Positions 22,012 to 28,000 of a DNA stretch of 64,000 bases are shown here, piece by piece. The notes beneath the pieces were generated by a model, which was not told the DNA's origin, searched no databases, and worked only from the letters and a program-made list of their open reading frames with translations. The position numbers were made by a program, and so were the translations under genes. The DNA is from Salvelinus alpinus (Eukaryota; Chordata; Actinopteri; Salmoniformes; Salmonidae), in NCBI RefSeq assembly GCF_045679555.1, contig NC_092122.1:15896565-15960564 (forward strand). Direction: 5' to 3'. The first letter of the stretch is position 1, and every line of letters begins with the position of its first letter.

Positions 22012-25000
22012 CTAGAAGACAGACACAGTTGTATCAGATTCTTTACAGGTTCTATCAGATCCACTTTTCAATTGTTCATCTGTCATCTCAATACCGTCAT
22101 GTTCTGAGATTGTTTGATTGATTTAATCAATTGACTGATTGAATGATTCAATCAACAGAACAATTTCCCACACATAGTCAGGGTGAATCTCATCTCATGC
22201 ACCACCAATGGTATAACTGGAACACAAGTCAAGCTCTTACCACCAGGGGTCATACAATACATTACAAAAGATGTTTGCTGCCTTATTCCTCTGTTGAATC
22301 GGACTAAACACTCAATAATTAAGACCTTAAAAATAAGTTTCCGTTCCTTCCATGTATAGAGGGACGATTTACCTTGAGTAACCTGACTCCCGTTGGAATG
22401 CATTCATGGATGCCAAGGGAAGTCAGGCTTCCCCTAAAAATTGTCCAATATTTATTTTTATTTTTAAATGTATCTTTCATGTCTGTCTTTCAGAATTTTA
22501 CTTAAATTCGCAAGAGGCAGAATGCATCTCACCAGAGAAAGCATTAAAGCGAGTGAAATTGCGCCCCTTTGTCTCTGTATGTATAGGCCATCTATCTGAT
22601 GATGTCTGGTCAAAAATAGTTTGGCATTTGGCCTCCCTTGATAAAAAACGGATAAAATAAAAACCAACCAGTGTTGAGCTAAACTGTAAACGGTCCTGGC
22701 TCACCAAAAAAAAGCATCAAGGGAAGCCAGTTTGGATTAGACTTCACTTCTATTATTATAACCGTGATTCTGATCCAAGGATAAATTCATACATTGTGCC
22801 CTTGGCCTAAGAGGATGGAAGTTCAATATGTAGCCAGATGTAGAAGGTTAACTAGCTAATGTTGCCCATGAAAGGAAGTTAGGCTAGCGAGCAAGCATTT
22901 TAACTAGGTAGCCGAGGTCAACAAAAAATAAAAACATGTGCTGTATAACAGAGTCATAGACCGTTTCGTCAACATGAAAGAGGAGGAATGCATTGGCATT
23001 TCTCTACAAGTGGGGTGAGTCAACATGTTTTTTTCTACTTGCACACACACACACACACACACACACACACACACACACACACACACACACACACACACAC
23101 ACACACACACACACACACACACACACACACACACACACACACACACACACACACACACACACACACACACACACACACAGAGAGAGAGAGAAAAATCTGA
23201 ACCATGGAAAGCCACATCATATTTAGCTTACGTTGATTGGACTAAATAGTTTTTGGTGTCTTTTAGTTGTCACTGTATTAGACTAAGCATAGGTGATTTT
23301 ATAATGTTGAAATGTTGAAGATGAAATGGTGCTGGAATAGTGGAGGCAGCTCCTGTTTTCTTTGCGACTTGTGGTAACTCTCCGTGGTTCTAAATCAATA
23401 GTTGTTTAGTAGTCCGGAAATGTCAGAAACGTTAATTTGCTTGACCATGCTGTAGTTCATGTAACTGTTTGTTACATTCAATATGCTTTGTGGACTTCAC
23501 TGGACAGAGGTTGCGCTCTGGTTTTGTAATGATGAAACAAAGGTCTGGTTGAATTTATTCTGCCACTGTGTTTTCTTATTGTCTCGGCCTTAGGCCTATA
23601 TATCATGGTGTCAATGCGTATGAACTAACAGGTTATAGAGGCGTATGAACTAACAGGTTATAGAGGCGTATGAACTAACAGGTTATAGAGGCGTATGAAC
23701 TAACAGGTTATAGAGGCGTATGAACTAACAGGTTATAGAGGCGTATGAACTAACAGGTTATAGAGGCGTATGAACTAACAGGTTATAGAGGCGTATGAAC
23801 TAACAGGTTATAGAGGCGTATGAACTAACAGGTTATAGAGGCGTATGAACTAACAGGTTAAAGAGGCGTATGAACTAACAGGTTATAGAGGCGTATGAAC
23901 TAACAGGTTATAGAGGCGTATGAACTAACAGGTTATAGAGGCGTATGAACTAACAGGTTATAGAGGCGTATGAACTAACAGGTTATAGAGGCGTATGAAC
24001 TAACAGGTTATAGAGGCGTATGAACTAACAGGTTATAGAGGCGTATGAACTAACAAGTTATAGAGGCGTATGAACTAACAGGTTATAGAGGCGTATGAAC
24101 TAACAGGTTATAGAGGCGTATGAACTAACAGGTTATAGAGGCGTATGAACTAACAGGTTATAGAGGCGTATGAACTAACAGGTTATAGAGGCGTATGAAC
24201 TAACAGGTTATAGAGGCGTATGAACTAACAGGTTATAGAGGCGTATGAACTAACAGGTTATAGAGGCGTATGAACTAACAGGTTATAGAGGCGTATGAAC
24301 TAACAGGTTATAGAGGCGTATGAACTAACAGGTTATAGAGGCGTATGAACTAACAGGTTATAGAGGCGTATGAACTAACAGGTTATAGAGGCGTATGAAC
24401 TAACAGGTTATAGAGGCGTATGAACTAACAGGTTATAGAGGCGTATGAACTAACAGGTTATAGAGGCGTATGAACTAACAGGTTATAGAGGCGTATGAAC
24501 TAACAGGTTATAGAGGCGTATGAACTAACAGGTTATAGAGGCGTATGAACTAACAGGTTATAGAGGCGTATGAACTAACAGGTTATAGAGGCATATGAAC
24601 TAACAGGTTATAGAGGCGTATGAACTAACAGGTTATAGAGGCATATGAACTAACAGGTTATAGAGGCGTATGAACTAACAGGTTATAGAGGCGTATGAAC
24701 TAACAGGTTATAGAGGCGTATGAACTAACAGGTTATAGAGGCGTATGAACTAACAGGTTATAGAGGCGTATGAACTAACAGGTTATAGAGGCATATGAAC
24801 TAACAGGTTATAGAGGCGTATGAACTAACAGGTTATAGAGGCGTATGAACTAACAGGTTATAGAGGCATATGAACTAACAGGTTATAGAGGCGTATGAAC
24901 TAACAGGTTATAGAGGCATATGAACTAACAGGTTATAGAGGCATATGAACTAACAGGTTATAGAGGCGTATGAACTAACAGGTTATAGAGGCGTATGAAC

Positions 25001-28000
25001 TAACAGGTTATAGAGGCGTATGAACTAACAGGTTATAGAGGCGTATGAACTAACAGGTTATAGAGGCATATGAACTAACAGGTTATAGAGGCGTATGAAC
25101 TAACAGGTTATAGAGGCATATGAACTAACAGGTTATAGAGGCGTATGAACTAACAGGTTATAGAGGCGTATGAACTAACAGGTTATAGAGGCGTATGAAC
25201 TAACAGGTTATAGAGGCATATGAACTAACAGGTTATAGAGGCGTATGAACTAACAGGTTATAGAGGCGTATGAACTAACAGGTTATAGAGGCATATGAAC
25301 TAACAGGTTATAGAGGCGTATGAACTAACAGGTTATAGAGGCATATGAACTAACAGGTTATAGAGGCGTATGAACTAACAGGTTATAGAGGCGTATGAAC
25401 TAACAGGTTATAGAGGCGTATGAACTAACAGGTTATAGAGGCGTATGAACTAACAGGTTATAGAGGCGTATGAACTAACAGGTTATAGAGGCATATGAAC
25501 TAACAGGTTATAGAGGCGTATGAACTAACAGGTTATAGAGGCGTATGAACTAACAGGTTATAGAGGCATATGAACTAACAGGTTATAGAGGCGTATGAAC
25601 TAACAGGTTATAGAGGCGTATGAACTAACAGGTTATAGAGGCATATGAACTAACAGGTTATAGAGGCGTATGAACTAACAGGTTATAGAGGCGTATGAAC
25701 TAACAGGTTATAGAGGCGTATGAACTAACAGGTTATAGAGGCGTATGAACTAACAGGTTATAGAGGCGTATGAACTAACAGGTTATAGAGGCGTATGAAC
25801 TAACAGGTTATAGAGGCGTATGAACTAACAGGTTATAGAGGCATATGAACTAACAGGTTATAGAGGCGTATGAACTAACAGGTTATAGAGGCGTATGAAC
25901 TAACAGGTTATAGAGGCATATGAACTAACAGGTTATAGAGGCGTATGAACTAACAGGTTATAGAGGCATATGAACTAACAGGTTATAGAGGCATATGAAC
26001 TAACAGGTTATAGAGGCGTATGAACTAACAGGTTATAGAGGCGTATGAACTAACAGGTTATAGAGGCGTATGAACTAACAGGTTATAGAGGCGTATGAAC
26101 TAACAGGTTATAGAGGCATATGAACTAACAGGTTATAGAGGCGTATGAACTAACAGGTTATAGAGGCATATGAACTAACAGGTTATAGAGGCGTATGAAC
26201 TAACAGGTTATAGAGGCGTATGAACTAACAGGTTATAGAGGCGTATGAACTAACAGGTTATAGAGGCATATGAACTAACAGGTTATAGAGGCGTATGAAC
26301 TAACAGGTTATAGAGGCGTATGAACTAACAGGTTATAGAGGCATATGAACTAACAGGTTATAGAGGCGTATGAACTAACAGGTTATAGAGGCATATGAAC
26401 TAACAGGTTATAGAGGCGTATGAACTAACAGGTTATAGAGGCGTATGAACTAACAGGTTATAGAGGCGTATGAACTAACAGGTTATAGAGGCGTATGAAC
26501 TAACAGGTTATAGAGGCGTATGAACTAACAGGTTATAGAGGCATATGAACTAACAGGTTATAGAGGCGTATGAACTAACAGGTTATAGAGGCGTATGAAC
26601 TAACAGGTTATAGAGGCATATGAACTAACAGGTTATAGAGGCGTATGAACTAACAGGTTATAGAGGCGTATGAACTAACAGGTTATAGAGGCATATGAAC
26701 TAACAGGTTATAGAGGCGTATGAACTAACAGGTTATAGAGGCGTATGAACTAACAGGTTATAGAGGCGTATGAACTAACAGGTTATAGAGGCGTATGAAC
26801 TAACAGGTTATAGAGGCGTATGAACTAACAGGTTATAGAGGCGTATGAACTAACAGGTTATAGAGGCGTATAAACTAACAGGTTATAGAGGCGTATGAAC
26901 TAACAGGTTATAGAGGCGTATGAACTAACAGGTTATAGAGGCGTATGAACTAACAGGTTATAGAGGCGTATGAACTAACAGGTTATAGAGGCGTATGAAC
27001 TAACAGGTTATAGAGGCGTATGAACTAACAGGTTATAGAGGCGTATGAACTAACAGGTTATAGAGGCGTATGAACTAACAGGTTATAGAGGCGTATGAAC
27101 TAACAGGTTATAGAGGCGTCTGAACTAACAGGTTATAGAGGCGTATGAACTAACAGGTTATAGAGGCGTATGAACTAACAGGTTATAGAGGCGTATGAAC
27201 TAACAGGTTATAGAGGCGTATGAACTAACAGGTTATAGAGGCGTATGAACTAACAGGTTATAGAGGCGTATGAACTAACAGGTTATAGAGGCGTATGAAC
27301 TAACAGGTTATAGAGGCGTATGAACTAACAGGTTATAGAGGCGTATGAACTAACAGGTTATAGAGGCGTATGAACTAACAGGTTATAGAGGCGTATGAAC
27401 TAACAGGTTATAGAGGCGTATGAACTAACAGGTTATAGAGGCGTATGAACTAACAGGTTATAGAGGCGTATGAACTAACAGGTTATAGAGGCGTATGAAC
27501 TAACAGGTTATAGAGGCGTATGAACTAACAGGTTATAGAGGCGTATGAACTAACAGGTTATAGAGGCGTATGAACTAACAGGTTATAGAGGCGTATGAAC
27601 TAACAGGTTATAGAGGCGTATGAACTAACAGGTTATAGAGGCGTATGAACTAACAGGTTATAGAGGCGTATGAACTAACAGGTTATAGAGGCGTATGAAC
27701 TAACAGGTTATAGAGGCGTATGAACTAACAGGTTATAGAGGCGTATGAACTAACAGGTTATAGAGGCGTATGAACTAACAGGTTATAGAGGCGTATGAAC
27801 TAACAGGTTATAGAGGCGTATGAACTAACAGGTTATAGAGGCGTATGAACTAACAGGTTATAGAGGCGTATGAACTAACAGGTTATAGAGGCATATGAAC
27901 TAACAGGTTATAGAGGCGTATGAACTAACAGGTTATAGAGGCGTATGAACTAACAGGTTATAGAGGCGTATGAACTAACAGGTTATAGAGCAAACAGCGC

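What the first reader, a model, noticed from the sequence alone, without database searches (positions are those of the whole stretch)
24791..26715. Hidden 42-unit higher-order duplication inside the 25-bp array
The 175 units look uniform, but the positions of the GCA variant form a barcode. The interval series 75, 50, 25, 125, 50, 100, 75, 50, 150, 75, 75 occurs twice, displaced by exactly 1,050 bp (42 units). Twelve of twelve markers match and no unmatched marker lies inside either block. This indicates a single recent segmental duplication by unequal exchange, replication slippage or break repair. A weaker four-marker match exists at an offset of 700 bp (24591 series versus 25291 series).
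Basis: seen in the sequence. Interest (0 to 1): 0.75.

Follow-up and report, generated by a model that had tools for sequence, protein, structure and literature searches.

The report
Transposon-born DNA array with internal duplication
A 25-letter stretch found once in nearly all examined copies of a common jumping gene has, in one copy, multiplied to 175 copies, and inside that array a block of 42 copies was duplicated exactly; such events are known, but here the unexpanded state can still be seen in sister copies.

Summary
In the 175-unit, 25-bp array (23616-27990), units 43-84 and 85-126 are identical base for base (1,050 bp) and carry the same 12 markers; shuffled arrays reach at most 8. 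It is a contiguous tandem duplication. The polarity is reversed: GCA is the ancestral unit, GCG the derived one.

The array lies inside a non-autonomous, hAT-like transposon (about 22391-28080; 8-bp target-site duplications, tested) with some 2,500 first-look candidate copies in the 2.37-Gb genome. All 50 copies scored with confidence hold one 25-bp motif. The paralogous block on contig C11 has the same insertion with one motif, so the array most likely grew in place from 1 to 175 units after that duplication. Six further loci hold 2 to 129 units. These seven share one 25-bp junction and account for every dimer found genome-wide at up to 1 mismatch; no 23- or 24-bp dimer was found. A second array (C1) carries its own exact 44-unit duplication.

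Best explanation: a minisatellite born inside a transposon, later enlarged by one large unequal exchange or break-repair event. A new member of a known kind. An assembly duplication cannot be excluded without reads.

The parts
24666..25715 (+). First copy of the 42-unit block (units 43-84); the left breakpoint may lie anywhere in units 43-47
   Evidence: markers; identical to the second copy in every base
25716..26765 (+). Second copy of the 42-unit block (units 85-126), directly adjacent
23616..27990 (+). 25-bp array, 175.0 units, GC(G/A)TATGAACTAACAGGTTATAGAG
22391..28080 (+). Non-autonomous hAT-like transposon copy that contains the array (about 1.34 kb if the array is counted as one unit); termini CAGTGG.../...CTACTG in relatives, degraded at the left end here
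   Evidence: ends read; for the family
22383..22390 (+). Presumed left target-site duplication CTGACTCC (5 of 8 match to the right one; degraded)
   Evidence: read by eye; the script did not include the window copy, and for its paralog found only 3 of 8
28081..28088 (+). Presumed right target-site duplication ATGACGAC
   Evidence: read by eye
23042..23179 (+). (CA)69 microsatellite inside the same transposon copy

Best explanation
A non-autonomous hAT-type transposon inserted here before this chromosome block was duplicated. It carried a single 25-bp motif (GCATATGAACTAACAGGTTATAGAG). In the C37 copy only, that motif was tandemly duplicated and then grew to 175 units. Early on one unit changed A to G at position 3 and GCG units took over both flanks, while some GCA units stayed in the middle. 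Late in this history one large event (unequal sister-chromatid exchange or synthesis-dependent repair inside the array, more likely than simple polymerase slippage at this size) copied 42 units in tandem. Shown by the sequence: the exact duplication, the transposon host, the single-motif state of the scored relatives and of the paralog, and a comparable duplication in array C1. Inferred: in-place growth rather than contraction of the paralog, the order of events, and the molecular mechanism.
For: Exact 1,050-bp contiguous duplication, 12 markers; highest shuffles 5-8. Only the simulated model with large segmental steps gave such a run (0 of 221 against 41 of 375). Both flanks belong to a dispersed element: 2,524 and 1,161 first-look candidates for left and right flank, only 40 scored each. 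Of 58 fetched copies (57 places; the paralog is both L023 and L059), 50 had a confident right flank; 49 of these hold exactly one motif, and the 50th (L026) was mis-registered by the script and shows one motif. Of the 8 others the script found one motif in 3 and none in 5. Eight-base target-site duplications: mean identity 0.70 against 0.28 in permuted pairs, z 10.7, a peak at length 8 alone; 12 of 25 distinct copies with both ends match at 7 or 8 of 8, out of 61 loci tried. Paralog C11 is collinear with window 15948-31521 and again at 59500-61500, and has the same insertion with one motif. Private singletons in the array are 4 in 4,375 bp (0.09%), about 4% of the one-lineage divergence of the flanks (4.65% corrected between paralogs), so the array is young or recently homogenised. 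CpG asymmetry: 27 G-to-A and 0 C-to-T at the same CpG argues against many independent deaminations and for spread by copying.
Against: No reads or second individual: an assembly duplication of 1,050 bp would look the same. The paralog's single motif could be a contraction from a multi-unit state. The tree of left flanks is nearly star-like (28 of 45 inner branches open, 4 starred) and does not reject the array-bearing copies being one clade (p-AU 0.217), so a shared multi-unit ancestor is not excluded. The shared 25-bp junction at all seven loci is easier to explain by one origin than by seven. No DNA hairpin preference was found that would explain instability (z from -0.92 to 0.97 for four 50-nt strands).
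Confidence: 0.8

Rival explanations
1. Assembly artefact: the 42-unit block was duplicated by the assembler, and the true array has about 133 units.
For: Exact identity over 1,050 bp; the array's flanks are themselves a dispersed repeat (best other copies 88-92% identical); the C2 array of the same family borders a run of N, which may be a gap or a withheld stretch.
Against: The window contains no N, and the array with its transposon is 5.7 kb between unlike sequence; an independent array on C1 shows its own exact 44-unit block, which would need a second artefact.
Confidence: 0.12
2. The multi-unit state arose once in the transposon lineage (a dimer-bearing element that jumped to several places); single-motif copies at paralogous sites are contractions.
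For: All 7 multi-unit loci use the same 25-bp junction and account for all 207 + 241 genome-wide dimer matches; 23- and 24-bp dimers were not found at up to 3 mismatches. The flank tree does not reject one clade of the four array copies that could be tested (p-AU 0.217).
Against: The free tree puts those four in four places (4 changes; log-likelihood 23.8 better), though with weak support; the window's flank is nearest to single-motif copies; all nine units of locus C7b carry T6C, which no unit of the other six loci has (it does occur in two single-motif copies, L021 and L028); the paralog of the window has one motif; no two-motif copy among the 50 scored.
Confidence: 0.25
3. The GCA pattern is not a copied block but recurrent CpG deamination at preferred positions.
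For: The variable base is the G of a CpG.
Against: 12 of 12 markers in register with none unmatched; no C-to-T change at the same CpG in 175 units; shuffles reach at most 8.
Confidence: 0.01

Closest known systems
Minisatellite variant repeat (MVR) maps, e.g. human MS32, CEB1 and the 25-bp haploid MSY1 (PMC2599865: abstract and passages seen)
   Same: Array of near-identical units whose variants form a code; blocks gained by intra-allelic duplication. The paper cites that 87-97% of MS32 blood mutants are simple deletions or duplications, and states that MSY1 units of other than 25 bp are never observed.
   Different: MSY1 length changes were 1-3 units in a 77-unit allele (abstract); here one step covers 42 of 175 units. 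No mutation-rate data exist here, and an MSY1-type hairpin is not supported.
Satellites and minisatellites born inside non-autonomous DNA transposons, e.g. Xstir and miDNA4 in Xenopus MITEs (PMC9659126: passages and table rows seen)
   Same: The monomer lies within a non-autonomous DNA transposon and is amplified in tandem.
   Different: Here the host is hAT-like and about 1.3 kb; the 50 copies scored keep one monomer and seven loci were found expanded.
Minisatellites from Alu, SINE B1 and LTRs in mammals (PMC9659126: passages seen)
   Same: Local tandem expansion within copies of an abundant transposon.
   Different: Different transposon class; here one motif with one junction recurs at several loci.

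Membership tests
hAT superfamily (non-autonomous) | 8-bp target-site duplication (defining role recalled) | tested here: met
   identity 0.70 against 0.28 at length 8, z 10.7; other lengths from 3 to 11 give z of 2.5 or less; 25 distinct copies with both ends out of 61 loci tried. Not clear for the window copy itself (5 of 8 by eye) or its paralog (3 of 8)
hAT superfamily (non-autonomous) | Short terminal inverted repeats beginning CAG (recalled) | tested here: met
   left end mostly CAGTGG, right end mostly CTACTG (reverse complement CAGTAG), so short and imperfect; inner termini share GGGAAGCCA; degraded in some copies
hAT superfamily (non-autonomous) | Mobilised by a hAT transposase | not tested
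   no ORF of 120 aa or more in 22391-28080; no autonomous relative was sought
Minisatellite | Tandem array of units of roughly 10-100 bp with variant units | tested here: met
Minisatellite | Length polymorphism between individuals | not testable with these tools
   one assembly only
Higher-order repeat array (as in centromeric alpha satellite) | Many successive copies of a multi-unit block | tested here: not met
   only two copies of the block, in part of the array; 'single segmental duplication' is the accurate term

The most novel reading that the evidence does not exclude
One fixed 25-bp stretch of a hAT-like transposon is a repeatable nucleation site: in several independent copies it was tandemly duplicated at exactly the same two positions and then grew to 2-175 units, with kilobase-scale block duplications following in at least two of them (C37: 42 units, C1: 44 units). 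The family's other copies (some 2,500 first-look candidates, 88-92% identical to the window's flank in the best 40) hold no further 25-bp dimer at up to 1 mismatch and serve as controls.
Probability: 0.35. Interest if true: 0.55.

Novelty: new member of a known kind. Interest (0 to 1): 0.36.

Why it matters
How a single sequence first becomes a tandem array is seldom observable, because the pre-array state is usually lost (general knowledge). Here the pre-array state survives in the other transposon copies examined and at the same insertion in the paralogous block, and arrays of 2, 9, about 30, 46, 68 or more, 129 and 175 units form a size series. That makes the birth step and the later growth by block duplication open to comparison across loci, individuals and related species. 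The 42-unit duplication itself is an ordinary late event in that history.

Tried and rejected
Older nested duplications in the W core (lags 11, 17, 28): weak at best (highest lag count P 0.13; best run P 0.17; number of lags with 6 or more pairs P 0.045). A 15-unit period in the C7 array rests on few markers (155 of 1000 shuffles reach its marker count), and C2 shows none (585 of 1000). C10 has a TRF period of 180, not tested by shuffling. DNA hairpin as cause of the 25-bp unit: folds no better than shuffles. Slippage on the 3-bp repeat GCA would give 24-bp units: none found; 23-bp units: none found. A 30-bp junction was found only inside the C10 array, three times. A single clade of array-bearing copies: neither supported nor rejected. 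Rows for that tree: of 62 candidates 12 were dropped as too short (C18 and 11 single copies) and L053 as a long branch, leaving 49; C1 and C10 were not entered for lack of the left flank. PRDM9-driven instability was considered (PMC11703093, passages only); no motif to test was taken from it. Biased gene conversion towards G/C was considered: the spread changes in C37, C2 and C7 and C7b are towards G/C, but the commonest change in C1 (G1A, 102 units) goes the other way. Coding function: no ORF of 120 aa or more in the array; no Rfam match at gathering score in the window. Literature: seven searches (listings only, one search returned nothing); none of the listed titles or abstract starts names this element. 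Only open-licence papers are held, so this is no proof of absence.

Full report
Observation. The window holds a 25-bp array of exactly 175 units at 23616-27990. Position 3 is G in 148 units and A in 27. At base level units 43-84 and 85-126 are identical over all 1,050 bp, so the two copies are contiguous; the exact run is 46 units, bounded by a mismatch at unit 42/84 on the left and by a private variant in unit 131 on the right. Shuffling controls give at most 7, 7 and 8 markers in three nulls of 3000 each, and 5 in 1000 with full unit types. Plain autocorrelation over the whole array does not single out lag 42 (0.39; lag 11 has 0.44); restricted to units 48-124, which are the two blocks themselves, it is 1.00 with 0.49 next.

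What model makes it. In forward simulations (six settings of 400 runs), arrays grown by steps of 1-3 units never showed a run of 12 or more markers at lag 20 or more (0 of 221 arrays with 15-45 minority units), while arrays grown with a heavy-tailed step size did in 41 of 375. The finding thus calls for large block duplications but not for anything unusual beyond them. The simulations are simple and their parameters are my choice.

Where the array lies. A search of the window's own genome (2.37 Gb, 928 contigs) with three units found arrays on four other contigs. The left flank is shared with C2 and C7 and the right flank with C7, C10 and C1; C2's right side is a run of N. The left flank gives 2,524 first-look candidates and the right flank 1,161, only 40 scored each: a dispersed element. 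Its ends are mostly CAGTGG... and ...CTACTG, and copies with both ends are flanked by 8-bp target-site duplications: among 25 distinct copies (61 loci tried) the mean identity at length 8 is 0.70 against 0.28 for permuted pairs, z 10.7, while lengths 3-7 and 9-11 give z of 2.5 or less. That fits a non-autonomous hAT element (family features recalled). In the window it spans about 22391-28080; the window copy's own target-site duplication is degraded (5 of 8 by eye).

One motif is the rule. Of 58 fetched copies (57 places, since L023 and L059 are both the paralog), 50 have a confident right flank; 49 hold exactly one motif, and the remaining one (L026) was mis-registered by the script and shows one motif. 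Of the other 8, three showed one motif and five none to the script. At position 3, 39 of 40 full-length motifs have A and one has T; none has G. So GCA is ancestral and GCG is the derived, now dominant state of the window's array. C2 also has 7 GCG units of 68, which I cannot explain beyond a parallel change or exchange between loci.

Paralog. C11:29756500-29766400 is collinear with window 15948-31521, and window 59500-61500 matches C11:29734181-29736250 in the same inverted order: a block covering at least 45 kb of the window, probably from whole-genome duplication (inference). It carries the same insertion with a single motif. In the aligned pieces wholly outside the element the two differ by 4.5% (227 of 5,031; 5.5%, 443 of 8,094, over all pieces). 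The array has only 4 private singletons in 4,375 bp, about 4% of the one-lineage flank divergence, and the 42-unit blocks differ at 0 of 1,050 sites (95% upper bound 0.29%, about 6% of the paralog distance). Both are therefore young relative to the block duplication, unless homogenisation reset them.

Other multi-unit loci. A genome-wide dimer pattern (up to 1 mismatch) has 207 plus and 241 minus matches, reversed-pattern control 0. A right-end pattern found two more loci beside the five arrays: C18 with 2 units, and C7:86380047 (C7b) with 9 units that all carry T6C. The seven loci account for exactly 207 and 241, so no other 25-bp dimer was found at that tolerance. T6C is in no unit of the other six loci, though two single-motif copies, L021 and L028, have it. 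The series is 175 (C37), 129 (C1), 68 plus a part, ending at a run of N (C2), 46 (C7), about 30 (C10), 9 (C7b) and 2 (C18). Array C1 has an exact 44-unit duplication with 8 markers in a 53-unit run; shuffles reach 6 at most in 1000. All seven loci share the 25-bp junction TATAGAG|GCATATG (with local variants); patterns for 24-bp and 23-bp dimers gave 0 matches at up to 3 mismatches. These searches tested named lengths only; a 30-bp junction was found within C10 and nowhere else.

Independent births or one? For independence: the single-motif paralog, the T6C of all C7b units, and a free tree that scatters the four testable array copies (4 changes). Against: the common junction, a nearly unresolved tree, and an AU test that does not reject one clade (p 0.217). 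I lean towards repeated births but hold this at moderate confidence.

Verdict. The duplication is real in the assembly and ordinary in kind. The setting, a transposon family in which a single-copy motif became an array at several loci, is the part of interest.

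Noticed in passing
window 23042-23179: (CA)69 microsatellite sits inside the same transposon copy, about 440 bp from the 25-bp array; alignment coverage of relatives dips there.
   Followed up: no
L012 (C1), array in reverse-complement coordinates 3818-7044: A second array of the family carries an exact 44-unit (1,100-bp) tandem duplication with 8 markers.
   Followed up: yes
L010 (C10): 30-bp units whose extra 5 bp (GCAAG) resemble the end of the element's left flank, and a TRF period of 180: a different junction from the other loci.
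   Followed up: partly
window 42951-44333; 13838-14201; 54749-55169: Further minisatellites (42 bp x 33, 41 bp x 9, 24/54 bp) within the same 64 kb.
   Followed up: partly
window 18797-19902 (-), 53052-53597 (+), 50140-50541 (+): Fragments matching Tc1/Sleeping Beauty-type transposase domains and a reverse transcriptase domain.
   Followed up: no
L009 (C2), array: GCG, the derived unit type of the window, also occurs in 7 of 68 units on C2; parallel change or exchange between loci is unexplained.
   Followed up: no
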